Source of the DNA: Moorella sp. Hama-1
GTDB lineage: Bacteria > Bacillota > DSM-521 > Neomoorellales > Neomoorellaceae
Assembly: GCF_023734095.1 (NCBI RefSeq)
Contig: NZ_AP024620.1
Location: forward strand, 2,786,501-2,850,500
DNA length: 64,000 nucleotides
Reading direction: 5' to 3'
Both the position numbers and the translations under genes were made by a program. Positions 5,551-17,724 of the stretch are shown here, in pieces (position 1 is the stretch's first letter; each line of letters opens with the position of its first letter). The notes beneath the pieces were generated by a model. The model worked only from the letters and a program-made list of their open reading frames with translations. It had not been told where the DNA came from and did no database searches.

Positions 5551-6858
5551 ATGTGGGCTTCCAGTTTTGATGCCAGAGAACAGAGGTTGCACCCGGAACT
5601 GATAATTGCCCTGGCCATGGTAAAAAAGGCGGCAGCCCTGGCTAATATGAAGGTGGGAACCCTGGAGCGGGTCAAAGCCATGGCCATTGCCCGGGCAGCC
5701 GATGAGGTAATTGAAGGGAAATGGCATGATTATTTTATCGGCGAGGTCATACAAGGCGGCGCCGGCACGGCGATCAATATGAACGCCAACGAAGTGATTA
5801 CCAACCGGGCGCTGGTAATTTTGGGTTACCAGCCGGGAGCTTGTGATAAACTGAACCCCATTGATGATGTAAATAAAGGCCAATCCACCAACGATGTGTT
5901 GCCCACGGCCATGAGAATTGCCGCCATCAGGCTCTGGCAGCGTTATATCAAAGCCAATTTATTGCTCGCCGGAACTCTGAGGGAAAAAGCAGCCCAATAC
6001 ATGGATGCTATTAAACTGGGACGCACCCACTTACAGGATGCGGTGCCTTTAACAATAGGCGCTGAGCTGGAAGCCTGGGCCGCGGCCATCCAGCGCGACA
6101 TAGAACGTGGCCATCGGGCGCAAAAACTGCTGGCGAAAGTTAACCTAGGAGGGACGGCCATTGGCACCGGTATAAATGCTCATCCCCTTTACCGGGAAAT
6201 AGTGATTGAGGAATTGCGCTTGGCAAGCAGTATACCGAACTTATGGCTGGCCAAAAACCTTATTGATGCTACCCAAAACCTTGATATACTGGTTGAGGTA
6301 TCCGGGTTCTTGCGGACGGCGGCCGTCACCCTGACGAAAATAGCCAACGATTTGCGCTTAATGGCCTTCGGTCCAATGGCGGGCCAGGCGGAAGTAGAGT
6401 TGCCCTCCCTGGCTGCCGGTTCCAGCATTATGGCTGGTAAGGTTAACCCCATCATTCCCGAGGTAGTCAACCAGGTTTGCTTTAAAGTGTTCGGCAACGA
6501 CCTGACCATCAGCATGGCCGCCTCGGCAGGACAGTTGGAACTAAATGTTATGCAGCCGGTGCTGGCCTTTGCCCTCTTTGAGAGCTTGAGCATGCTAGCT
6601 GAAGCCGTAAATTCCCCGGCCTTGAGAGTTATCAAGGGAGTGAAGTTCCGGGTGGAGCGCTGCCGCCACTATGCTGAGGGCGCCTTGAGCCTGGTAACCC
6701 CCCTCGTACCCGTCATCGGCTATGCCGCAGCGGCTGATGTTGCCAAGAAAGCCCTGGCCAGCGGCAGGAATATTCTGGAAGTGGCAAGGGAGTTGAAACT
6801 GCTACCGGAAGAGCAGGCGCGGGAATTGTTGGACCCGCGTCATATGTTGCCAAATTAA
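5551..6858 (+). CDS. aspA: Aspartate ammonia-lyase, N-terminally short
   Basis: Aspartase/fumarase superfamily enzyme expected to deaminate L-aspartate to fumarate and ammonia. Visible family blocks in order: RLHPELIIALAMVKKAAALAN, GGAGTAINMNANEVITNRA, KGQSTNDVLPTAMRIAA, KLGRTHLQDAVPLTIG, and the superfamily signature loop GSSIMAGKVNP (most aspartases have MPAKVNP or MPGKVNP here). The protein is 435 residues, while the family is about 465-470: the usual first 30 residues are replaced by an unrelated MWASSFDAREQ stretch, no ribosome site precedes the ATG, and an in-frame stop lies just upstream. The 5' end may have been damaged in this IS-rich region, so activity is uncertain. Confidence 0.75.
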   Translation: MWASSFDAREQRLHPELIIALAMVKKAAALANMKVGTLERVKAMAIARAADEVIEGKWHDYFIGEVIQGGAGTAINMNANEVITNRALVILGYQPGACDKLNPIDDVNKGQSTNDVLPTAMRIAAIRLWQRYIKANLLLAGTLREKAAQYMDAIKLGRTHLQDAVPLTIGAELEAWAAAIQRDIERGHRAQKLLAKVNLGGTAIGTGINAHPLYREIVIEELRLASSIPNLWLAKNLIDATQNLDILVEVSGFLRTAAVTLTKIANDLRLMAFGPMAGQAEVELPSLAAGSSIMAGKVNPIIPEVVNQVCFKVFGNDLTISMAASAGQLELNVMQPVLAFALFESLSMLAEAVNSPALRVIKGVKFRVERCRHYAEGALSLVTPLVPVIGYAAAADVAKKALASGRNILEVARELKLLPEEQARELLDPRHMLPN

Positions 6859-6869
6859 TTGCTGTTTAC

Positions 6870-7028
6870 CGACCCCCCTCTTCTTCCTACCAGTGGCTGG
6901 CATCGGAGGCTATTTACCGTCTGGAAGTAGAAGATTTTCCGGTGATGGCGAGCATTGACTGCCAGGGAATGATTTATACGTCAGCGGCCGGGCCAGGCAT
7001 CGCCAGCTATAAGTATATATGGAATTAA
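6870..7028 (+). pseudogene. Unidentified open fragment after aspA
   Basis: A frame of about 50 codons, different from the aspartase frame, reads YQWLASEAIYRLEVEDF and PVMASIDCQGMIYTSA, ending at TAA 7026-7028. The composition looks like real protein, not chance translation, but I cannot name the family. No start or ribosome site is visible. It sits between aspA and an IS66 relic and is most likely a leftover of a deleted gene. Confidence 0.3.
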
Positions 7029-7138
7029 CTATGGTAATGGTATTTAATGCTGGTAATGCTGAGTAAACTCAACTATATTGTATATATTGAACATTAATGT
7101 TTTTTATTACCGCGAAAAGGCCTTCTATTCTCCTGATA

Positions 7139-7320
7139 CCCTGCGGCCATTCCCTTAGCAACGCCCATCACCTGCGGGAGTTGGCCGGGGTTATCGAGAA
7201 CGAGGAGCAGGCCTGGGCGTAGCAGATGCAAGATCTGTTTATTACAATCAAGGTAGCGGTGGCTAAACAAAAGGAGAGTGCCCAGACGCATCTTAGGCTG
7301 GAGCAACTGATGGATTTCGA
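7139..7320 (+). pseudogene. IS66-family transposase relic
   Basis: Plus-strand codons read NAHHLRELAGVIENEEQAWA, a TAG, then QMQDLFITIKVAVAKQK. This matches the conserved stretch after the second catalytic region of IS66 TnpC transposases (typically NAHHLREL...WA..M..LL..IK). It contains a stop and lacks both ends, so it is a decayed remnant. It lies against the 3' end of the convergent permease gene, marking the boundary between the IS-rich region and the catabolic island. Confidence 0.6.
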
Positions 7321-7334
7321 GTCACGCTACAGCC

Positions 7335-8630
7335 TCATTCATCTTCTTTTTTTGGCAGTATCCGGTTAAGTATGATGGCTGTTGAACCACCTACCGCAAC
7401 CCCAGACCCTAGTATAACTGCAAGAGAAGATGGCAGGTGATCAAGAGCGCCTGCCGGATGTAACCCAAAGCCCATACCCAAGGCGACAGAAGTTGCAAAA
7501 ATAAGCATCTCGCGCTGCCCGAAAACATTCGCATCGCGAAACTGTAAAATACCCGAACCGGCAATAGCACCAAACATAACCAGAGCTGCGCCCCCAAGTA
7601 CCGGCGCAGGCATACCGGCAACCATGGCTGCAAACTTTGGTACCAGGCCTAGAAGCAATAAAATTACACCGCTGGCGGCTACGGCAAAACGGCTAGCAAC
7701 CCCGGTAATACTTATGACACCAATATTTTGGCTGAAAGAAGTTATTGACAAACCGTTAAATACAACTGCGATTGAAGACAATAACCCATCGACGCCTATA
7801 GCTCCAGATAACTCCCTCGGACCTATTTTTTTTCTAGCAACCACACCGGTGGCATAGGTATCCCCGATAGTTTCCAGCATTGAAGCAAATTGCGCTACCA
7901 GTACTGCTAATATTGCAGGCCACGAAAACTTTGGCGGCCCAAAAGAAAATACCTTTGGCATAGCGATCCATGACGCTTCCTTTACTAATCCAAGATCCAA
8001 TATCCCCGTAATACCAGCTGCCAGATAACCAACGACAATGGCCAAAGCAATAGATATAGATGGAAAAAAACCTCTCGTAAACTGGTTTATTAGAATGAGA
8101 AGTACCAAAACTAGCCCGCCAATGGCAAAACTCACCGGCTGACCAAAAAGAGGGCCTTCACCGCCTGCTAACCATGTAAAGCCAAGGGGCATTAATCCCA
8201 TACCAATTAAGACAACAACAGTGCCGGTAACAACCGGGGGTACTAGTTTTTGAATACGCCAAACAAAAAAGCTCAAAATAAATTCAACTATACCCCCAAC
8301 AATCGCCGCTCCAAGGATAGCCTGGAGGCCCAGATTAGAACCGACGCTTATAAATGGTGAGATAAACACAAATGCTGTCCCCATACAGATAGGGAGCCTG
8401 GCGCCCAGCCCACCGATACCCAGACATTGAATGAGTGTGCCGATTCCACTAGTTAGAAGCGAACCTTGTACTAGAATGGTCATCTGGTCCCCAGGTAGTT
8501 TCAATGCAGTTCCTACCATCAAGGGCACAGCAACTATCCCGGCAAACATAGCCAGGACATGTTGAATACCATAAAGGATTAAAGATGGCGAGGCGGGTTT
8601 CTCATCCACACCAATAAAGCGTCTGCCCAT
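7335..8630 (-). CDS. NCS2-family xanthine/uric acid-type permease
   Basis: A 431-residue polytopic membrane protein of the nucleobase-cation symporter-2 (NAT) family, expected to import a purine or related cyclic ureide with H+ or Na+. Visible marks: the QH pair in TM1 (GIQHVLAMFAG, Q23-H24), the substrate-site ETIGD motif, and the NAT signature QNIGVISITGVASR, whose QN-x-G-x4-T-G form resembles xanthine/urate carriers more than the uracil type. ATG at 8630 is preceded by a G-rich ribosome site. It is the last gene of the minus-strand island, 81 bases after the small DMT permease, and probably brings in the substrate for the ring-opening hydrolase upstream. Confidence 0.85.
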   Translation of the reverse strand: MGRRFIGVDEKPASPSLILYGIQHVLAMFAGIVAVPLMVGTALKLPGDQMTILVQGSLLTSGIGTLIQCLGIGGLGARLPICMGTAFVFISPFISVGSNLGLQAILGAAIVGGIVEFILSFFVWRIQKLVPPVVTGTVVVLIGMGLMPLGFTWLAGGEGPLFGQPVSFAIGGLVLVLLILINQFTRGFFPSISIALAIVVGYLAAGITGILDLGLVKEASWIAMPKVFSFGPPKFSWPAILAVLVAQFASMLETIGDTYATGVVARKKIGPRELSGAIGVDGLLSSIAVVFNGLSITSFSQNIGVISITGVASRFAVAASGVILLLLGLVPKFAAMVAGMPAPVLGGAALVMFGAIAGSGILQFRDANVFGQREMLIFATSVALGMGFGLHPAGALDHLPSSLAVILGSGVAVGGSTAIILNRILPKKEDE

Positions 8631-8711
8631 TTTTTCCCCCCCCTTATTAGTTCTCGCTGCCCTTTATTCCTTAGCTATTTGCCATGGCAAGGGCAAGCTT
8701 TTTATGGAAAA

Positions 8712-9158
8712 TTATTTATGAATTACCAGGTTTACGCCGATCAATAGTAATACTATACCCACTATGCGAATTAAATTTAAAGTAACACGTGGAGCCCCAA
8801 ATAACCCATATTGATCAATTATTGCTGCCATAATCAACTGTCCTGTTATGGCAGACGAAAGCACCCCTCCCGCGCCAAGTATGGGAATAATCTTCGTCAT
8901 ACTAAGTACGACGGCAGCGCCGATTACCCCTCCGAAATAATAAATGGGTTTTATCTGGCCTAAGACCTCTAACCTGAAGGGTTCTTTCGTTAACAAATGG
9001 AATATGATGACTGAGAGGATGAGCACAAATGAACCAATTATAAAAGATATAGTCGAAGCAACCAGCGAACTAGTATATCTGGCAAGGCCTGCGTTGATTA
9101 CCGGTTGAATCGCCCATATAGCTCCGACACCAAAGGCTAAAAAGAAAAATACAAGCAT
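8712..9158 (-). CDS. Small DMT-superfamily permease (YdcZ/DUF606 type)
   Basis: A 148-residue hydrophobic protein with five probable membrane helices, the size of a single half of a normal EamA/DMT exporter. The order of helices and the LGAGGVLSSAITGQLIMAAI segment fit the DUF606/YdcZ family, members of which occur singly or as pairs; only one is present here, so it would have to act as a homodimer. It lies between the cyanuric acid hydrolase gene and the NCS2 permease, separated from the former by a strong hairpin. Substrate unknown; export of a pathway end product such as urea or an amide is only a guess. Confidence 0.7.
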   Translation of the reverse strand: MLVFFFLAFGVGAIWAIQPVINAGLARYTSSLVASTISFIIGSFVLILSVIIFHLLTKEPFRLEVLGQIKPIYYFGGVIGAAVVLSMTKIIPILGAGGVLSSAITGQLIMAAIIDQYGLFGAPRVTLNLIRIVGIVLLLIGVNLVIHK

Positions 9159-9190
9159 TAATTCACCTCAAGTCATCATTTTGGAAAATT

Positions 9191-9219
9191 GTGGGGAGGG
9201 CTACACCAGTAGCCCCCAC
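9191..9219 (-). terminator. GC-rich hairpin after the hydrolase gene
   Basis: Just downstream of the hydrolase stop on the minus strand, GTGGGGGCTAC pairs with GTAGCCCTCCCCAC across a TGGT loop, followed by AATTTTCC. It could be a partial terminator or an RNA-stabilising hairpin lowering expression of the two downstream permease genes relative to the enzymes. Confidence 0.6.
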
Positions 9220-9224
9220 ACGTC

Positions 9225-10328
9225 CTAGGCTCTGGCAATAACTGCAATTGGTCCACCGCCATCGGGCCCTTGATGCTCTGCGCCACCGGAAACATATACC
9301 ATGGGGTCCTTTACCACATTGGCAATTACTGCGTTTACTACCGCTCGCGCCATTCGGGTATGGTTGATATCGGAATCATCGAGCATTGTATTGCGACGAC
9401 CCCTTACCGTACCATAAGATGCAGCTTCAGCTTTGGCCAGTACATTGACAATCTTGCTGAGTTCATCAGCTGTCGGACAACAATCAAATTTTAACCCGGC
9501 ATCCTTAAGAGCAGCGCGTACCGCATCTGCGTCAATGGCGTCTTGCATAACTGAATGTCCTATGACTAAATCACTGGCACTATGAACAGAGTTACCGACC
9601 AGAATGATTTCATCTTTTAGGAGTTCAACGCCAGCCGAAGTGGAAGCCACACTGGAATATAAACTCCAATCATGGCAAATAACATCGTTGTTAATCTTGC
9701 TTGCAGATATTTCGCCTAGTGCAATAGCAACCCCTAATGCTGATGCTCCGCGTGAATAGGCCATTGACTTATAAGTGTCATTAACTACTACTTCATGCCC
9801 TCGTCGTTTTGCGTCTGCAATTCTTTCCGCCGTTAAAAGCGGACATTTTATTTGAACAAAGTGAACGTCCCGGGGATCGGTTATCATAGCATTAACCATG
9901 GCTTCCTTTACCGCCCGGGCTACCTCATTTACCTGTTCCATCCGCCCCAGTTCTTCTGGCAAGAAATCTCTCGTGAAAGCAACACCTACCGCTAACCGTT
10001 TTCCCTGTTTAGCAGGTTCTTGTACATCTTTCCGGACAAAAACAGTAAGGTGCGGTGTCATTACACCTTCAGTACCACCTGACATTACGAACGCAACTTT
10101 TCGAAGAACTTCATTAGAGCTTATTCCCATTTTTTCGGCCAGGTAAACTGCTAAAGACTGTGTGGAAAAACCACGGGTAAAATCATTAACGCAGCCATTA
10201 CCTTCTGTTTTTCCCAGAATAGCAACAATCTCGTGCGGGTTAATTGTTCCTGCATCAATCATAGCCGCCAAGCCACTGACATCATCCGGTGACGCCGTTG
10301 CGATACGGAAAACCTCTACCTTTTGCAT
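9225..10328 (-). CDS. atzD: Cyanuric acid hydrolase / barbiturase family ring-opening amidohydrolase
   Basis: Opens s-triazine or pyrimidine-trione rings by hydrolysis; known members convert cyanuric acid to carboxybiuret or barbiturate to ureidomalonate. The 367-residue length fits this small family, which is built of three repeated units each bringing a Ser-Lys pair to one active site. Candidate pairs from the motifs are K40 ([10 protein letters not shown]) with S83 (MSGGTEG), K161 (VQIKCPLL) with S231 (ASTSAGVE) and K299 (VLAKAEAAS) with S347 ([15 protein letters not shown], also the metal-binding loop). From memory the sequence is very close to the thermostable enzyme characterised from Moorella thermoacetica. 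No biuret hydrolase or allophanate hydrolase is nearby; instead the gene follows an AllFGH-like set, pointing to a different fate of the product. The stop is TAG at the usual family length. Confidence 0.9.
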
Positions 10329-10365
10329 TTTATATACAATCCTCCTCTTTTGATAAAATATCCAT

Positions 10366-11778
10366 TCAACATATAACCTCAGCGAGGCGCTTTAACGCTA
10401 CAATAAAGCATTCCATGGGAGCACGGACAAGGCCAGCCCCGATCTGCCCAATACCGGCTTTGCGGTGGGCAATACCTGTATTGATTATAGGGCATATACC
10501 TGTTTCAACAACCTTTAGGACGTCAATACCTGTCGGCGTAGGTCGAAAATCCAGATTGGGAATGTTATAATCGGGATTTGCCGTTAAAGTGATGTTATAC
10601 ATCTCCCGGGTATAGTTAAGGGCGTCCTCAGTAGTTCCACCCACAAATTGAACAATGGCCGGCGCTGCTGCCATGGCGAAACCACCAAGACCACACGTTT
10701 CAGTAATAGCGCTATCACCAAGGTCAGGGTTGGCTTCAGCATCGCCGTACCCGGGGAAATACAGACCTTTAACAAAAGGGGCTGGGGCTGTAAACCATTC
10801 GCCACTGAGGCCGCTTACACGGATACCAAATTCTACACCATTGCGCGCCATAACTGAAACAAGGGTGCTGCCGGGTACTCCATGGGCAGCGTCAAGACTT
10901 GCCTTGCATGCCGCCATGGATATATTCAGGTAAAAGTGATCATTTTTCGCCATGAAAAGGGCAATTTCCTCTAATTTATCGGGTGTGCATGTCTTTACCA
11001 AAGCAGGCATCAAGGTTCGCGTCAACAACGATGTAGCCGCCAGGTTACGGTTATGGCATTCATCTCCCATCTGTAAGGCCTTTGCAGTAAGAGTTTTAAG
11101 ATCTATACCACCTATTGAACGGATAGCTTCCCGTAGGGCTGGCGCCATGACATCACGAAGCCAATGTAACCGATCAATGACTTCAGGAGAATTGGCACCA
11201 AATCTTAGAACCTTGCCCAGGCCCTCATTGAAATTGGAGTAAGCCCGGTTCCCAAAGGTTTCATTTTCGATAACAAACACAGGCATCGACGCCGAAATAA
11301 CCCCGGCCATGGGCCCGACAGCACCATACTCATGACAGGGAGCAAACTTTATTTCACCACTGGCAGCTAGTGCTTCAGCTTCCCCTACATCATTGGCCAG
11401 GCCTTCATATATAAGAGCACCGATAACAGCCCCCCGCATAGGACCGCACATTTTGCTCCAAGTAATCGGTGGTCCAGAATGCAAAAGCATCTTGCGCTCA
11501 AAACCCGGGATCTCTTCACCAGCAAGCCCAATATCCACTAGCTTGGGACGGGACTCCAAGAGGCGGCTGATGGCTTGTTGGTTGGCATTATTTATAACAT
11601 CGGTATGTTCCTCTAATAATGACAATAATCTGATGAGATCCGGATCGCCGTTGGCAGGCGGCTTCCACTCTACATGAACATTGGCAACTCCAAGGGAAGA
11701 CAGATCACGGGCAAAAGAATCAAGTCCCAAGTTTATTACTTTGACGGGACTTTTAATTAAATCTTTACTTAAAGTCAC
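10366..11778 (-). CDS. allG: DUF1116 protein, AllG/YlbE-like transcarbamylase subunit
   Basis: Large DUF1116 protein. In E. coli the FdrA, YlbE and YlbF trio (AllF, AllG, AllH) was shown to form oxamate transcarbamylase, which makes carbamoyl phosphate from oxalurate; this gene is the YlbE counterpart. Conserved stretches include [55 protein letters not shown] and [20 protein letters not shown] place the start at GTG 11778 (470 residues), which has GGGGGTG five bases upstream and overlaps the FdrA stop by 14 bases, typical of translational coupling; an open frame extends 52 codons further up but only shadows fdrA. The gene ends 38 bases before the hydrolase start. Confidence 0.85.
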
Positions 11779-13345
11779 AGTTACACCCCCGATTCTCATG
11801 TAGCTTAATGACTTTCGCTGCCACCCTTGCTGCTTCGGCATTGGAAGGTAAGACAAAAATCTTTTCTTTTTCAAGGGTCCTGACTTGTTCACTAAGAGGT
11901 TGCGGGTCTGCTTCTGTACCGCAAACAAAGGCAATTATTGCCGGGTGGTTCTTTGGATAAGCGCTCCTTGCCCGGGCCACTGAGCTGGCTAATTCACCTG
12001 CCGGGTCGGAATGGCTCCCATAACCTGCTACCACGTCGCAAAGGATAACTCCTACTTCCGGGTCTGCATATTCCTGTAGCAAGCGTTCGTTGCGGGGCAA
12101 GGGATCGATCATCGGATGAGGACGTCCTCTTGTAAATTCGTCATCTCCTAAATCCACGATTGTATGCTTATGGCTTTCCCTGGCAACAGGTAACTTCAGT
12201 TCCGGTTTGAGCGGAATATTTGAAAATACATCCCCGATGATACCGTTAACTATTACCATGGCCTCATCAGCCAGGGTACCACCCGTAAACAGGCCCCGAA
12301 TATAGCGCTGGTCGGGCTCCAACTTGCTTTCTATTACTACTATCTGCTCCGTAAAGTCCCCCCAGAAGTTTTCCGGCATGTTAATTGCTTCCTCTCCATT
12401 GGCCAAGGCTACCGCTTTGTACGCTGCATCTTCGATAGTTGGGGCACCTATAACCCCAGCATATTTAAAACGGCTTAAATCACCCTTAAGCAAGCTCACA
12501 ACTACAGGTTTCTTGCATTTTTTAACCCTATCTATTATCTTAATTGTTGTTTTAGGTCCGGCTGGTTTCGATACCAGCAAAATAACCTCTGTTGAAGGAT
12601 CATCTTCAAGGAGATCTATACCTTGCAGCATCATCAACCCGCCGACAGCATCTGATAGATCTCTCCCTCCCGTGCCAATTGCATGGGAGATACCGCCTCC
12701 CAGGTGATCAATTAAAACCGTTGCCTCCTGAATACCAGTCCCCGAGGCACCGATAATTCCTATCTTACCGCGGGCGACAATGTTAGCAAAGGCTAGGGGT
12801 ACGCCGTTGATGATCGCTGTTCCGCAATCCGGCCCCATTACTAGCAATCCCTTTTTAGTTCCAATTTGTTTTAACCGAATTTCATCCTCCAGTGTAACAT
12901 TATCGCTAAATAAATGAACATTTAGCCCAAGGTTAAGTGCTTTAATCGCTTCTGCAGCGGCATATGTGCCTGGTACGGAAATAAGCGCCAGGTTGGCATC
13001 GGGTAAAGCCTCAACCGCGCTACGTAAAGTTTTGGGGAGAATTTGTTTGCCATTCGCTTGTTTCGCCGTAGAATTTGTGAGGAGATTTTCTGCCAATTCC
13101 ACAGCCTTGGTTGCCTGCTCTTCAGTAGCGGCAGCTACCACTATTGCCAAGTCGTTTGGGTTAGCATTGGCTACTTCCGGTACAAGCATACCTATATCTT
13201 GTAAAGTACCTTTATTCATCTCTGTTGCCATTACAACGGAAGCTTGTTGAACTCCATCTTGTTTACGAAGTTCAGCAGATAACTTCATTAGTTTAACAGA
13301 ATCCTGATATGTTTTTGGCTTAATTAGCCAACGAATAACCACCAA
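11765..13345 (-). CDS. fdrA: FdrA/AllF-like acyl-CoA synthetase-fold protein
   Basis: A 526-residue protein with the fold of succinyl-CoA synthetase alpha subunits, the FdrA/AllF member of the three-part transcarbamylase. Visible parts: a nucleotide-binding Rossmann region with SVPGTYAAAEAIKAL (about 123-137), MGPDCGTAIINGVPLAFAN (about 170-188), the glycine loop GIIGASGTGIQEATVL (196-210) and ISHAIGTGGRDLSDAVGG with H221 at the position of the phosphohistidine region of the alpha subunit. The C-terminal third is a second ligase-like domain (DVVAGYGSHSDPAGE). GTG start at 13345 follows AGGAG and overlaps the DUF2877 gene by 26 bases; the end overlaps the DUF1116 start. The three genes are clearly translated as a unit. 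Confidence 0.85.
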   Translation of the reverse strand: MVVIRWLIKPKTYQDSVKLMKLSAELRKQDGVQQASVVMATEMNKGTLQDIGMLVPEVANANPNDLAIVVAAATEEQATKAVELAENLLTNSTAKQANGKQILPKTLRSAVEALPDANLALISVPGTYAAAEAIKALNLGLNVHLFSDNVTLEDEIRLKQIGTKKGLLVMGPDCGTAIINGVPLAFANIVARGKIGIIGASGTGIQEATVLIDHLGGGISHAIGTGGRDLSDAVGGLMMLQGIDLLEDDPSTEVILLVSKPAGPKTTIKIIDRVKKCKKPVVVSLLKGDLSRFKYAGVIGAPTIEDAAYKAVALANGEEAINMPENFWGDFTEQIVVIESKLEPDQRYIRGLFTGGTLADEAMVIVNGIIGDVFSNIPLKPELKLPVARESHKHTIVDLGDDEFTRGRPHPMIDPLPRNERLLQEYADPEVGVILCDVVAGYGSHSDPAGELASSVARARSAYPKNHPAIIAFVCGTEADPQPLSEQVRTLEKEKIFVLPSNAEAARVAAKVIKLHENRGCNCDFK

Positions 13346-14231
13346 CCTGCATCTCCTTTCCGTTTTCCAAAGCCCACAATAAACCCATAGTAGTATCTGT
13401 ACCTGAGGAAGCTCCTCGTACTAAAAGCTTCTTTATTGTGGTATAAATATTTCCCTTCCTCCCTTCTGCTATTTCTGTCAATAGTATCGTAAGCGGTTCC
13501 ATGTAATACCCCGCACAAGCCCACTTAATATGTGCCTGGCTGATTTCGTTCGTCATTGCAAGGCAAGATAACATGACAGACTGCAGTATTTTCTTTATAT
13601 CCCGTGCGCGAGAGTTTTTAGTGGCTATCAATTCCAAACCGCTCATATAACCTACGAGTAAATCGTCCCCGGAGGGAGTTAGCCCCGGCCCCAAACCTAA
13701 AAGGGTTTTAACCGCTTCTGAAGCGCAAGATTGCCAATCCCCCTGACCCCAGCTGGCCCGCAATAGATCAAGGCCACGTTTTCCCCTTTGCGCAATAACC
13801 CTCTCTAAAGGGTCACAGGCTCCCGTAACATTAAAATTGGTGATGTATAGCATAGGCCCTTTACCAAAGGTAGACATAAACGACCACAGGGAAGCAAAAT
13901 CCATGCATTCGAGATCAATGTTTAGCGTGGGACTAATGCGTTCCGCATAAATCCGGTCCTCAAGGAGTAAAACCGATTTCTCATCGCAAATCCGGGCTTT
14001 ATTAAAATCAACGTAACCTCCCGACATCACCCGACGGCGTAAGGCACGCCAAGCCGAATCCTCTAGTAACACATTGATTGGCCCTTGACCTATGGACCGG
14101 TCTCCTACACAAATAAGTCCATCTTGAGCCTGGCAATAAAAGGAGCGCTTGGATACCGAGATCACTTCAGCCCTGAAAGCTAATCGGCCAAGATTCTCCC
14201 ACGCTCCAATGCCCACGGAAAGGGCTTCCAT
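13320..14231 (-). CDS. allH: DUF2877 protein, AllH/YlbF-like transcarbamylase subunit
   Basis: A 303-residue DUF2877 protein, the third component of AllFGH-type transcarbamylases. The family hallmark LLGLGPGLTPSGDDLLVGY lies near residue 190 and a C-terminal RGASSGTDTTMGLLWAL follows; both look like ligand-binding loops. It lies 24 bases downstream of the transporter gene and overlaps fdrA by 26 bases. A second, decayed DUF2877 N-terminal piece occurs 4.5 kb away (around 19.2 kb). The subunit assignment rests on the conserved trio; the actual carbamoyl donor in this organism is unknown and, given the neighbouring hydrolase, may not be oxalurate. Confidence 0.8.
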   Translation of the reverse strand: MEALSVGIGAWENLGRLAFRAEVISVSKRSFYCQAQDGLICVGDRSIGQGPINVLLEDSAWRALRRRVMSGGYVDFNKARICDEKSVLLLEDRIYAERISPTLNIDLECMDFASLWSFMSTFGKGPMLYITNFNVTGACDPLERVIAQRGKRGLDLLRASWGQGDWQSCASEAVKTLLGLGPGLTPSGDDLLVGYMSGLELIATKNSRARDIKKILQSVMLSCLAMTNEISQAHIKWACAGYYMEPLTILLTEIAEGRKGNIYTTIKKLLVRGASSGTDTTMGLLWALENGKEMQVGGYSLAN

Positions 14232-14255
14232 ATTGCTTACCCCTTTACACAGCCA

Positions 14256-15491
14256 TCACAAGAAGAGACCAAGTATTATAAGAACCCCAAGAACCCCAAG
14301 GACATACGGTGCGTTGTTACGGACAACGCTTTCAATTTCCATTTCAAACGTCTGCGAGAGAGCAGCAACGTTAATTTGAACAGGACTCATCTGGGTACCC
14401 ATACCAATCGCCAATGCCACAAGTCCCATTTGTAAAGGCGTTAACCCAATAGCAGACAAAACTGGAACGACCAGGCTGATAACACCCACACTATATGCGC
14501 CAGCGGGCACAGCTACAAGGAAGCCCGCTAGGAGCGCCGCCGGTATGAAGATAAAAGCTGGCGCACTCGCGGCAATTTGGGCTATATATTTAAAAGTGCC
14601 AATTTCCGCAAGGATATTAATGAACCCCAGAAAAACACCGATGGCAAATAAGCGAGTGAGGATAAAGGAAGAGCCCTGGATTAAATTCTCAGCCACCTTA
14701 TCCATAGAGGATTTTGTCAAAATGATGGCTAGTACAAGTGTGCTGACCATATTAAAAGGCGGAGTGAAAACGTGGTAACCGCCAAACAGCTTGTTTAAAT
14801 ATGTCCCCGCCACAACTACAATGATAAAATAAAGGGGTGGAATGGCTGTTCTTACCATCTGTCCCGTAGGCATCGTTTCCTTCTTTTCTTCTTTTAAGAG
14901 ACTGCCTCGCCGCCAGACACCGTAAGCAGCCAGGGCAACACCTATAAGCCAAAATAGGACAGTCAGGGGGAACATCTGGGAAACATATGAACTGACATCA
15001 ATCCCGGCGATTTTAGAAAGAGTGGCGCTTTCTGCAGAAGCAGGGGATGTTTCAAAACTCGCGGCCGTTGCAATTGCCATCCCTGCGATTAGCTCAGGCA
15101 CCGCCCCTACAGCGGCAAAAGCCAGGGGCCCGGTTACCATAGTATTGCCTGCGCCGAGACCGGCAGCATAAGTTGCTAGCGCCTGGATGATTACGATAGC
15201 TGCCGCGACAAGGTATACCTTATTGCCTACTACCTTTCGGCTCAATCTAAGCAAGGCGTCAAACCCGCCGGTTTTGGCCACGGCAAGGGCTGTCGCGGAA
15301 TACATAATTGGCACCGTCATGGACATCATACCCGGGATGGCGTCCATAATTATCTTTGTCGCCGACGCCAAGCCCACACGCCCGATAATCATCGCTACGA
15401 TAGCGCCACTGATACCGGCAATCATCATGTGCTTTTTCATAATAAGAGCAGCGATAATAATTAAAAGCGGTAGAATTACGATTACACTCAT
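14256..15491 (-). CDS. Polytopic ion-transporter superfamily permease
   Basis: About 411 residues with roughly ten to twelve hydrophobic helices and paired re-entrant-like segments (LGAGNTMVTGPLAFAAVGAV and a later GMGTQMSPVQINVAAL), typical of the ion transporter superfamily (anion symporters, DctM-like and gluconate-like carriers). ATG at 15491 is chosen because GGAGGA lies seven bases upstream; a longer frame starts inside that ribosome site. It is the first gene of the island operon, directly before the DUF2877 gene, so it probably carries an organic anion that enters or leaves the pathway. Precise family and substrate cannot be read from sequence. Confidence 0.7.
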   Translation of the reverse strand: MSVIVILPLLIIIAALIMKKHMMIAGISGAIVAMIIGRVGLASATKIIMDAIPGMMSMTVPIMYSATALAVAKTGGFDALLRLSRKVVGNKVYLVAAAIVIIQALATYAAGLGAGNTMVTGPLAFAAVGAVPELIAGMAIATAASFETSPASAESATLSKIAGIDVSSYVSQMFPLTVLFWLIGVALAAYGVWRRGSLLKEEKKETMPTGQMVRTAIPPLYFIIVVVAGTYLNKLFGGYHVFTPPFNMVSTLVLAIILTKSSMDKVAENLIQGSSFILTRLFAIGVFLGFINILAEIGTFKYIAQIAASAPAFIFIPAALLAGFLVAVPAGAYSVGVISLVVPVLSAIGLTPLQMGLVALAIGMGTQMSPVQINVAALSQTFEMEIESVVRNNAPYVLGVLGVLIILGLFL

Positions 15492-15537
15492 AAATTTATC
15501 CTCCTCCATATAAATAATTACTATAAATAATCAAAAG

Positions 15538-15615
15538 CGGGGAATAAGAAATAGTCTACAGTTTAGTATTAAATTAGTTCAGGTAGTTTCAATCCACCTA
15601 CCTTCCTCACCCCGC
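15538..15615 (-). promoter_or_regulatory. Structured 5' leader of the catabolic operon
   Basis: On the minus-strand transcript GCGGG at 15615-15611 can pair with CCCGC at 15542-15538, extended after a small internal loop by UGAGGAA with UUUCUUA. Inside is a second hairpin GGUAG...CUACC (loop about 11 nt). The closing stem is followed by CUUUUGAUUAUU, like a weak intrinsic terminator, about 45 bases before the first ribosome site. This could be an attenuator or ligand-sensing leader. It does not show the conserved core of the purine riboswitch. Confidence 0.4.
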
Positions 15616-15816
15616 AATTGTAGTTTATCATTTGCTAAGATATCGTTTCTATATCAATAGTTGACGAAACACACCCGGATATCTGGTCAAAGATCTACAA
15701 TAACAGGTGCGGTGTTCTCCCTTTAGCCCTGGTAAGGCCTAGGAAAAATTGAACATTGGCTTTCTCGGGCCTTGGAACTATTTTACCGTAGTATCTTGTA
15801 TCTTCCTGAATGCGGC

Positions 15817-15882
15817 TATCCTGAAAAAACGCCCCTTACCATTTTCATCCACTGCTGGTGCCGCCTGGGCGGCATGGGCGTC
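15817..15882. repeat. Palindromic DENGK-type repeat, copy 1
   Basis: One unit of a dispersed repeat, nearly identical to the first unit at 18742. It starts TATCCTGAAAAAACGCCCC and ends with the palindromic core GCCGCCTGGGCGGC followed by ATGGGCGTC. Read on the minus strand it is open and encodes AAQAAPAVDENGKGRFF. It lies in the pucR upstream region. Confidence 0.7.
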
Positions 15883-16074
15883 TAACCTGTAAAAGGTAAG
15901 TTAAATACCTGTTAATACCATTTATAATTTACCCCAAACAAGAGGAGATGCTTTTCTGTTGGCGAATATAAAAAGAAAGTCGGCTGTAAAAACAGCTTAA
16001 TGTACCATAGAATTATTAAATCATTGTTATGTGTACGCACACAAAACGTGCTTGTTTTTTGGAGGTATATACTT

Positions 16075-17724
16075 ATGTTGGGAATATCCGTAAAAGAAGC
16101 GCTTGATTTACCCCAGATGGAAGGAGCAGTACTGCTTGGAGGCGACCAGGGGCTTAATCATATAATTCATTCCGTAAACATTATGGAAGTGCCAGACATA
16201 GAAAATTATATTAAACCCGCAGAGCTTTTACTGACAACCACATATCCTATCAAAGATGATAGGAATGCTCTTGAAAACTTAATACCACAGTTATATAAAC
16301 ATGGGTTAGCGGCTTTGGCTATAAAGCCAGAACGTTACATCCGCGAGATCCCGGAAATAATGATTACGCAGGCTAACCATTATGGGCTTCCCCTAATTAA
16401 GTTACCGAATACTGCTTCGTTTAATGAAATTATAAACCCTATCTTAACGGAAATTCTCAATCGCCAGGCGGCCATCCTTAGTAAAAACGAACAAATTAGT
16501 AAAGCCTTAACCGAAATAATGTTACATGGCGGAGGATTGGCTGAAATCTCGAGAACACTTGCAGGACTGCTGGGTTTACCAGTCTCTATTCATGATCCTT
16601 CTTTCCGGAAGATAGCTTCCTGGTTATCTCCCCGTGATTTTGGTAGTGATAAAAATCGGGCTCTCTCCGAATTTGTAAATGACAATAAACTACTAGCAGA
16701 AACCTTTAATGGTAATAAAGATCAGATGATATTTAACCATACCCACGGGTTTTGTGCTATATGTCGTCCAGTCACTGTTGCCGGCGAAATTTATGCGTAC
16801 TTGTTTATCTGGGACCCAGAAAGCCCTTTTCCCGAACGTCAATTAGTAGGCATTGAGCAGGCAATTACTGCCATCGCACTTGAAATAAGTAAGAGTCGCG
16901 CTATTTTCGATGTAGAGGCTAGATTTAAAAGCAGCTTCATAGATTATCTCATGGACGGTGAGATTACTTCGAGGGAAGACGCCATTGTTTTGGCTGAAAG
17001 ATTTGGTTGGGTAATAGCCGATGGCTTTACAGTAATATTATTTGAATGTGATGACCTCAAGTCTCTTTATAACCTTGATCCAGTAATTACACGTAAAAAA
17101 AGAATAAATATGGTGGAAACGATTAATTCCACTGTTACTTCATTATCCCCGGGTTCGGCCGTTGTCGAGAGAGGAAGCCGGTTAATGGTTTTGCACCGCA
17201 GCCGGCAATGCAAGGACATTAAGGAGTCAAGGCACAATTCCGAAATGTTGGCCCATTATTGCTGTCAAGAGTTAGCAAGACGGTTAGAAACTAGAGTAGT
17301 TGCGGGAATTAGCCGCTTTATTCCTGACCCCATGGAGATTGTTAAAGGCATTACCCAGGCACAACAAGCCCTTGAAATTGGAAGATGCGCTTTTGAGCAA
17401 GGGCAAGTTTTTCACTTTGACGATCTAGGGGTTTACCGCATCTTGTTTACTTCAGACACAGCGGAAATGCGCCGGTTCTACGATGATGTCCTGGGACGTT
17501 TGGTCGTTTATGATCAAGAAAATGATGCCGGGCTAATAGTAACGCTTGAGGCTCTATTCACTAATGAAATGAACCTGCAAAAAACAGCCAAGGCCTTATT
17601 TATTCATTACAATACCATAAGGTACAGGGTAAACCGTATACAACAAATTACTGGACTGGATTTGAAATCTCCTGATGATTGTTTAAACCTGCAGCTTGCT
17701 CTCAAAATTCTTCACATGAAATAG
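16075..17724 (+). CDS. pucR: PucR-family transcriptional regulator
   Basis: Regulator of the PucR/CdaR type, divergent from the catabolic operon it probably controls. The N-terminal PucR domain (about residues 1-125: ISVKEALDLPQMEGAVLLGG, VPDIENYIKPAELLLTTTYP) is followed by a GAF/GGDEF-like middle region and a C-terminal PucR helix-turn-helix (about 485-545: FTNEMNLQKTAKALFIHYN, TIRYRVNRIQQITGLDL). In Bacillus PucR governs purine catabolism, which fits the neighbouring genes. I choose ATG 16075 (549 residues) because GGAGGT lies nine bases upstream; the frame reaches 75 bases further back without a ribosome site. Confidence 0.85.
   Translation: MLGISVKEALDLPQMEGAVLLGGDQGLNHIIHSVNIMEVPDIENYIKPAELLLTTTYPIKDDRNALENLIPQLYKHGLAALAIKPERYIREIPEIMITQANHYGLPLIKLPNTASFNEIINPILTEILNRQAAILSKNEQISKALTEIMLHGGGLAEISRTLAGLLGLPVSIHDPSFRKIASWLSPRDFGSDKNRALSEFVNDNKLLAETFNGNKDQMIFNHTHGFCAICRPVTVAGEIYAYLFIWDPESPFPERQLVGIEQAITAIALEISKSRAIFDVEARFKSSFIDYLMDGEITSREDAIVLAERFGWVIADGFTVILFECDDLKSLYNLDPVITRKKRINMVETINSTVTSLSPGSAVVERGSRLMVLHRSRQCKDIKESRHNSEMLAHYCCQELARRLETRVVAGISRFIPDPMEIVKGITQAQQALEIGRCAFEQGQVFHFDDLGVYRILFTSDTAEMRRFYDDVLGRLVVYDQENDAGLIVTLEALFTNEMNLQKTAKALFIHYNTIRYRVNRIQQITGLDLKSPDDCLNLQLALKILHMK

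What the first reader, a model, noticed from the sequence alone, without database searches (positions are those of the whole stretch)
7335..17724. Cyanuric acid hydrolase/barbiturase encoded with an AllFGH-like transcarbamylase, two importers and PucR: a possible fermentative cyclic-ureide pathway
Seen: seven minus-strand genes in close order (anion-type transporter, DUF2877, FdrA, DUF1116, ring-opening amidohydrolase, small DMT permease, NCS2 permease) and a divergent PucR, with overlapping transcarbamylase genes. Known: AtzD/TrzD-type enzymes open cyanuric acid or barbiturate; E. coli FdrA/YlbE/YlbF form oxamate transcarbamylase that yields carbamoyl phosphate. Inferred: the ring-opened product (carboxybiuret/biuret or ureidomalonate), or a later derivative, is cleaved phosphorolytically to carbamoyl phosphate, which a carbamate kinase elsewhere could turn into ATP. 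This differs from the aerobic route via biuret and allophanate hydrolases, none of which is present. It would give a natural reason for cyanuric acid hydrolase in anaerobic acetogens.
Basis: partly seen in the sequence, partly recalled or inferred. Interest (0 to 1): 0.8.

Follow-up and report, generated by a model that had tools for sequence, protein, structure and literature searches.

The report
Cyanuric-acid ring-opener paired with transcarbamylase
An acetogen-like bacterium carries, and many unrelated bacteria and hospital-type plasmids share, a gene set that probably opens the ring of cyanuric acid and then splits the product with phosphate, so that the cell gains ATP and nitrogen by a route not described in the papers I could search; the step that joins the two enzymes still has to be shown by assay.

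Summary
A Moorella-type genome (3.32 Mb, one contig) encodes, at 7335-17724, an NCS2 permease, a YdcZ protein, a cyanuric acid hydrolase (CAH; 87% identical to the crystallised M. thermoacetica enzyme, all nine catalytic residues kept), AllG, AllF, AllH, a DcuC/DASS-like anion carrier and a PucR regulator. The neighbourhood is not unique. CAH lies with AllFG(H), usually with carbamate kinase, in six phyla and with shuffled gene order, and as one cassette on 48 enterobacterial-type plasmid records. In 398 genomes of the phylum, 10 of 12 with CAH also have AllG, against 49 of 386 without (p = 1e-7); in Chloroflexota the link is mostly absent. This genome has no biuret hydrolase, carboxybiuret hydrolase, allophanate hydrolase or urease, but a carbamate kinase lies 8.7 kb beyond the permease, next to it in sister species. 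CAH alone frees no nitrogen, so AllFGH is the only candidate downstream enzyme in the cluster. Best reading: cyanuric acid -> carboxybiuret/biuret -> carbamoyl phosphate -> ATP + NH3 + CO2. Barbiturate is unlikely. Which acyl-urea AllFGH splits (carboxybiuret, biuret or allophanate) is unresolved, and no assay exists. In relatives without CAH, a PF04199 hydrolase often takes its place.

The parts
7335..8630 (-). NCS2 (PbuX-type) nucleobase permease, probable uptake of a cyclic ureide
   Evidence: PF00860 307 bits; TIGR03173 pbuX 445 bits over cut-off 414; beside CAH also in L002, L004, L024, L165, L167, L168 and the plasmids
8712..9158 (-). YdcZ/DMT-family small membrane protein
   Evidence: PF04657 110 bits; conserved only in Moorella-type clusters
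9225..10328 (-). Cyanuric acid hydrolase (AtzD/TrzD family), ring opener
   Evidence: 6bum 2.8e-199; 87% identity over 361 residues and Ser83/231/347, Lys40/161/299, Arg52/193/328 at the same numbers as in PMC6557486; NF052395 568 bits
10366..11784 (-). AllG (DUF1116), transcarbamylase subunit; ORF open to a TTG at 11934, start near 11784 more likely
   Evidence: PF06545 323 bits; only AllG in the genome; homologues about 470 aa
11623..11748 (-). about 42-aa segment at the AllG N-terminus, homologous to the C-terminus of E. coli AllF (510-552)
   Evidence: NF004760 second hit, AllG residues 59-107 to FdrA 506-554; profile search
11765..13345 (-). AllF (FdrA), transcarbamylase subunit
   Evidence: NF004760 520 bits, cut-off 433; PDB 3dmy 1.4e-88
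13320..14231 (-). AllH (DUF2877), transcarbamylase subunit
   Evidence: PF11392 84.5 bits; only AllH in the genome
14256..15509 (-). Ion-transporter-superfamily (DcuC/DASS-like) anion carrier; the transporter most constantly found with CAH, likely cyanurate importer
16000..17724 (+). PucR-type regulator, divergent here; on the same strand as the operon in M. mulderi, G025 and G124
   Evidence: PF07905 112 bits, PF13556 81 bits; orientation in relatives

Best explanation
The cluster encodes a cyanuric-acid catabolic route that conserves energy. Cyanurate is imported (anion carrier and/or NCS2 permease). CAH opens the ring to 1-carboxybiuret, which loses CO2 spontaneously to give biuret. The AllF-AllG-AllH complex, a relative of the E. 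coli oxamate transcarbamylase, transfers the terminal carbamoyl group of the acyl-urea (carboxybiuret, biuret or allophanate) to phosphate, giving carbamoyl phosphate plus allophanate or urea. Carbamate kinase makes ATP, NH3 and CO2. PucR switches the cluster on. SHOWN: gene identities, catalytic residues of CAH, co-conservation, presence of carbamate kinase, absence of the known hydrolytic alternatives. INFERRED: cyanurate as the transported substrate, phosphorolysis of the ring-opened product by AllFGH, the ATP yield, the regulator's ligand. Predicted end product in this genome, which lacks urease and allophanate hydrolase: urea, unless AllFGH also splits allophanate.
For: (1) CAH is 87% identical to the crystallised M. 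thermoacetica enzyme and keeps all catalytic residues. (2) CAH with AllF and AllG in Moorella, Enterococcus, Huaxiibacter and Klebsiella, Melaminivora, Acholeplasmataceae, Chloroflexota, Actinomycetota and Nitrospinota-type MAGs, with gene order shuffled. (3) Carbamate kinase in or beside those clusters: L002, L003 (two), L004, L005, L007, L016, L022, L024, L028, L165, L167, L168; in G000 it lies 8.65 kb beyond NCS2 behind IS elements and xanthine-dehydrogenase remnants. (4) Bacillota sample: AllG in 10 of 12 CAH genomes vs 49 of 386, p = 1.3e-7, and within 3 kb of CAH in 8. (5) CAH releases no nitrogen by itself; G000's only amidase is GatA (no AtzE/AtzF), and it has no BiuH-like protein (best 52 bits), no allophanate hydrolase and no urease. 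(6) Plasmid cassette [carrier]-CAH-NCS2-AllH-AllF-AllG-arcC-LysR, with no other ureide enzyme in the three records read, in 48 (CAH) and 49 (AllG) records with nearly the same genus tally. (7) AtzC/cytosine-deaminase-like deaminases, candidates for making cyanuric acid from ammelide, sit beside CAH and AllFG in L005-L007, L010, L168-L171, L173. (8) Chemistry: oxalurate (the E. coli substrate, PMC11326118), carboxybiuret and biuret are all acyl-ureas of the form R-CO-NH-CO-NH2; the Pseudomonas ADP route uses carboxybiuret enzymatically (PMC6219798).
Against: No enzyme assay, growth test or expression data. In Chloroflexota only 6 of 19 CAH genomes have AllG (p = 0.10) and only one has them adjacent; Paenibacillus CAHs go with a BiuH homologue instead. 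Some AllFGH clusters also hold a BiuH-like isochorismatase (L003, L006, L173; without CAH L180, L192), so the AllFGH substrate there could be allophanate rather than biuret or carboxybiuret. CAH-linked AllGs do not form one clade, and I found no AllG or AllF residue set that marks them off from PF04199-linked ones. The K. michiganensis plasmid carries an allophanate hydrolase gene outside the cassette.
Confidence: 0.7

Rival explanations
1. Two separate ureide salvage routes under one PucR regulon: CAH degrades cyanuric acid to biuret as waste, while AllFGH plus carbamate kinase use oxalurate (or another purine-derived ureide) as in E. coli. Clustering reflects shared regulation only.
For: AllFGH in E. 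coli is an oxamate transcarbamylase (PMC11326118); most AllG-bearing Bacillota lack CAH and have a PF04199 hydrolase and sometimes xanthine dehydrogenase next to AllG; no CAH-specific residues found in AllG or AllF.
Against: No allantoin, ureidoglycolate or PF04199 gene beside AllG in the close CAH clusters; plasmid cassettes carry only CAH, AllFGH, carbamate kinase, transporters and a regulator, where CAH would give no nitrogen if uncoupled; CAH-AllG pairing persists through rearranged gene order in six phyla.
Confidence: 0.18
2. AllFGH phosphorolyses allophanate, not biuret or carboxybiuret: biuret is first hydrolysed by a BiuH-like enzyme and AllFGH replaces allophanate hydrolase, giving carbamoyl phosphate and carbamate. 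(A sub-variant of the best explanation, so the two confidences overlap.)
For: BiuH-like isochorismatases (best PDB matches biuret hydrolases) in clusters L003, L006, L173 and beside AllFGH without CAH in L180, L192.
Against: Moorella-type, Enterobacterial, Melaminivora, Naasia and G221 clusters contain no BiuH homologue, and G000 has none in the whole genome; all BiuH-like scores lie below the NCBIfam equivalog cut-off.
Confidence: 0.2
3. The ring opener acts on barbiturate; the product ureidomalonate is cleaved by AllFGH to carbamoyl phosphate and malonamate.
For: Barbiturases belong to the same family (PDB 5hwe, 318 bits); ureidomalonate is the one-carbon homologue of oxalurate (chemical reasoning); nucleobase-type permease present.
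Against: Closest characterised enzyme (87% identity) is inhibited by barbiturate and opens cyanuric acid (PMC6557486); NF052395 cyanuric-acid equivalog 568 bits vs cut-off 360; triazine-type deaminases (AtzC-like) accompany several clusters; one cluster is in a genus named for melamine degradation (L005).
Confidence: 0.05

Closest known systems
E. coli allFGHK (oxamate transcarbamylase plus carbamate kinase; PMC11326118, PMC9843812)
   Same: Three homologous subunits and carbamate kinase; predicted phosphorolysis of an acyl-urea to carbamoyl phosphate, then ATP
   Different: Associated ring or substrate generator is CAH rather than AllB/AllC/AllE/AllD; AllG carries at its N-terminus the segment that E. 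coli has at the AllF C-terminus
Moorella thermoacetica cyanuric acid hydrolase (PDB 6bum; PMC6557486)
   Same: 87% identical, same catalytic residues; G025 and M. mulderi CAHs, about 96% identical to it, sit in the same gene order
   Different: The papers I could read treat the enzyme alone; they do not mention AllFGH or carbamate kinase
Hydrolytic cyanuric acid pathways: AtzD-AtzEG-AtzH-AtzF (Pseudomonas ADP) and CAH-BiuH-allophanate hydrolase (Rhizobium) (PMC6219798)
   Same: Same first step and same intermediate, carboxybiuret
   Different: No AtzE, AtzF, BiuH or urease in this genome; a transcarbamylase and kinase instead, so energy would be conserved
Comammox and archaeal allFGHK beside triuret/biuret genes (PMC12625717)
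   Same: allFGHK next to biuret-family genes
   Different: No CAH in those genomes; the authors read allFGHK as oxalurate degradation

Membership tests
AtzD/TrzD cyanuric acid hydrolase | Family profile over the curated cut-off | tested here: met
   PF09663 539 bits; NF052395 568 bits, cut-off 360
AtzD/TrzD cyanuric acid hydrolase | Three Ser-Lys dyads, three Arg, [13 protein letters not shown] calcium loop | tested here: met
   Ser83/231/347, Lys40/161/299, Arg52/193/328 identical; loop identical in the alignment
AtzD/TrzD cyanuric acid hydrolase | Hydrolyses cyanuric acid, not barbiturate | not testable with these tools
   Inferred from 87% identity to a characterised enzyme
AllFGH transcarbamylase | All three subunits AllF, AllG, AllH encoded together | tested here: met
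AllFGH transcarbamylase | Carbamate kinase partner | tested here: met
   G000:C1:2784262-2785182, 380 bits, cut-off 358; adjacent to NCS2 in L002 and L165
AllFGH transcarbamylase | Oxalurate/oxamate as substrate | not testable with these tools
   No assay; genome context points to another acyl-urea
E. coli-type allantoin pathway | AllB, AllC, AllE, AllD genes beside AllFGH | tested here: not met
   None among the genes at 5551-17724 or in the stretch further left; the whole genome was not searched for them
Hydrolytic (AtzEF / BiuH) cyanuric acid pathway | AtzE, AtzF or BiuH, or urease, in the genome | tested here: not met
   Only amidase is GatA; best BiuH-profile hit 52 bits, cut-off 370; no TIGR02713 over cut-off; no urease

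The most novel reading that the evidence does not exclude
AllFGH-carbamate kinase is a general energy-conserving module for acyl-ureas that is combined with different ring openers: CAH for s-triazines, a PF04199 (isatin hydrolase/formamidase-like) enzyme for another cyclic ureide in anaerobes, and a BiuH-like enzyme for linear ureides. With CAH it forms a complete fermentative cyanuric-acid pathway that yields ATP and is spreading on multiresistance plasmids.
Probability: 0.5. Interest if true: 0.85.

Novelty: new variant of a known kind. Interest (0 to 1): 0.72.

Why it matters
It would give the anaerobic and Moorella-type cyanuric acid hydrolases, including one studied for pool-water treatment, a physiological role; add a substrate-level phosphorylation route fed by an s-triazine; extend the recently identified oxamate transcarbamylase to new substrates; and name the function of a cassette now annotated as 'ring-opening amidohydrolase, FdrA, DUF1116, DUF2877' on many enterobacterial plasmids, some from drains and showers. 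One possible selective force there, chlorinated isocyanurate disinfectants, is speculation.

Tried and rejected
Barbiturate as substrate: rejected on homology to a barbiturate-inhibited enzyme. A CAH-specific signature in AllG/AllF: none found. One origin of the CAH-AllG pairing: the AllG tree puts CAH-linked rows in several places (6 changes, at least 2 forced by starred branches; quick tree, long branches), so one origin is unlikely but the number is not fixed. The careful CAH tree did not finish; only the quick tree is used. A third Melaminivora cluster (L188: carbamate kinase, AtzC-like and an allophanate-hydrolase C-terminal-domain protein) was set aside because its GC (44%) differs from the other contigs (61-65%), so contamination is possible. 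Three papers on this enzyme family (PMC6952224; 10.1128/AEM.03594-15; 10.1128/JB.00791-12) are not held, so earlier notice of this context cannot be excluded. Searches for 'cyanuric acid' with fdrA, carbamate kinase or carbamoyl phosphate found only the nitrifier paper.
Full report
WHAT IS THERE. The window lies in a single-contig 3.32 Mb genome of the Moorella group. Every gene in the finding is confirmed with coordinates and family assignments. The ring opener is 87% identical to the crystallised Moorella thermoacetica cyanuric acid hydrolase and keeps its three Ser-Lys dyads, three Arg and the calcium loop at identical numbers. AllG and AllH are single-copy in the genome. The unnamed transporter is an ion-transporter-superfamily anion carrier by fold. 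The cluster's GC is 45.6% against 53.9% for the window.

THE CARBAMATE KINASE. It is 8.65 kb beyond the permease on the same strand, just outside the window. Between them lie IS transposases and pieces of a xanthine-dehydrogenase-type enzyme. In M. mulderi and G025 the kinase directly follows the permease, so in this genome the operon was interrupted.

IS THE NEIGHBOURHOOD CONSERVED? The scan of 84,980 species genomes returned 80 CAH loci. AllF and/or AllG lie with CAH in M. mulderi, Enterococcus aquimarinus, Huaxiibacter, Klebsiella michiganensis, Melaminivora (two loci), a Bacillota MAG, an Acholeplasmataceae MAG, two Chloroflexota MAGs, a Naasia MAG and two Nitrospinota-type MAGs. Most also have carbamate kinase and the same anion carrier; several have an AtzC/cytosine-deaminase-like enzyme. 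Gene order differs between lineages. In an even sample of 398 genomes of the window's phylum, 12 have CAH, 59 AllG and 10 both (Fisher p = 1.3e-7; 2.3e-5 without the three same-genus genomes). In 8 of the 10 they are within 3 kb; in a ninth (G175) AllF and AllH lie beside CAH and the contig breaks before AllG. Three of these have a divergent CAH (about 45% identity) with two tandem AllG genes.

WHERE IT FAILS. In 400 Chloroflexota genomes 19 have CAH, but only 6 of them have AllG (p = 0.10) and one has them adjacent; most CAHs there belong to a more distant subtype. Paenibacillus CAHs go with a BiuH homologue and no AllFGH. The link therefore belongs to part of the family. On the CAH tree the AllFGH-linked and BiuH-linked rows separate with 2 changes against 16 in shuffles (quick tree). 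On the AllG tree CAH-linked rows fall in several places.

WHY COUPLED. CAH yields carboxybiuret, which becomes biuret and CO2, so no ammonia is freed until a second enzyme acts (PMC6219798). The genome has no AtzE or AtzF (its only amidase is GatA), no BiuH, no allophanate hydrolase and no urease. Plasmid cassettes in Citrobacter, Klebsiella, Enterobacter, Leclercia, Raoultella, Serratia, E. coli, Aeromonas and Shewanella hold CAH in 48 records and AllG in 49 with nearly the same tally; three records whose regions were read show CAH-NCS2-AllH-AllF-AllG-carbamate kinase-LysR and no other ureide gene. In such a cassette AllFGH is the only candidate for the missing step.

MECHANISM AND LIMITS. 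E. coli AllFGH interconverts oxalurate and phosphate with oxamate and carbamoyl phosphate (PMC11326118). Carboxybiuret and biuret share the R-CO-NH-CO-NH2 end. The predicted reaction is carboxybiuret (or biuret) + Pi -> carbamoyl phosphate + allophanate (or urea). BiuH-like genes in some AllFGH clusters (L003, L006, L173, L180, L192) keep allophanate open as the substrate there. No residue signature distinguishes CAH-linked AllG/AllF, which is the main weakness.

WIDER PATTERN. AllG loci without CAH in anaerobic Bacillota usually carry a PF04199 hydrolase directly after AllG (16 of 27 short loci with only about 1.5 kb of flank, plus two more in longer stretches), which is lacking beside AllG in CAH clusters except for remote 34-37 bit hits in L016 and L022. 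This looks like an alternative ring opener feeding the same transcarbamylase and kinase. A roughly 42-aa segment is the C-terminus of AllF in E. coli, the N-terminus of AllG here, and a separate small ORF in six other loci.

NOVELTY. Parts are known; the combination was not found in the searchable papers, but key subscription papers were not held. I call it a new variant of a known kind, with the joining reaction unproven.

Noticed in passing
AllG 11623-11748 in the window; L169-L171, L183, L184, L187; L176 (E. coli): A segment of about 42 aa moves between the AllF C-terminus (E. coli), the AllG N-terminus (Moorella and most others) and a stand-alone ORF of about 60 aa between allF and allG.
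   Followed up: partly
L181-L187, L135-L161: AllFGH clusters without CAH in anaerobic Bacillota usually carry a PF04199 hydrolase right after AllG, some with xanthine dehydrogenase, PucR and carbamate kinase; candidate for another ring-opening partner.
   Followed up: partly
plasmids NZ_OQ821180.1 (L178), CP026716.1 (L177), NZ_MG252895.1 (L179): The CAH-AllFGH-carbamate kinase cassette is carried by about 48 enterobacterial-type plasmid records, one of which also carries KPC-2, several from showers, drains and patients.
   Followed up: partly
L169, L170, L171: Tandem double AllG genes with a divergent CAH (about 45% identity) and an AtzC-like deaminase.
   Followed up: no
L180 (G043) and L192 (G562): AllFGH and carbamate kinase with a BiuH/TrtA-like isochorismatase but no CAH beside them; L180 holds the nearest CAH-less relative of the window's AllG.
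   Followed up: partly
L122 6185-12499 (left of the window and into its first bases): IS elements and remnants of a xanthine-dehydrogenase/aldehyde-oxidase enzyme separate NCS2 from the carbamate kinase in this genome.
   Followed up: partly
window 16000-17724: PucR is divergent here but on the same strand as the operon in M. mulderi, G025 and G124, so it was inverted in one lineage.
   Followed up: no
L028 10483-10860: Homologue of the allophanate hydrolase C-terminal domain on its own, likely part of the Naasia CAH cluster; possible decarboxylase of an N-carboxy intermediate.
   Followed up: no
L016, L018, L022: In Nitrospinota-type contigs carbamate kinase lies directly upstream of CAH; in L016 and L022 AllFG is about 7 kb away.
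   Followed up: no
window 5551-6858: Aspartase/fumarase-family protein between NCS2 and the IS elements; absent from the cluster in relatives.
   Followed up: no
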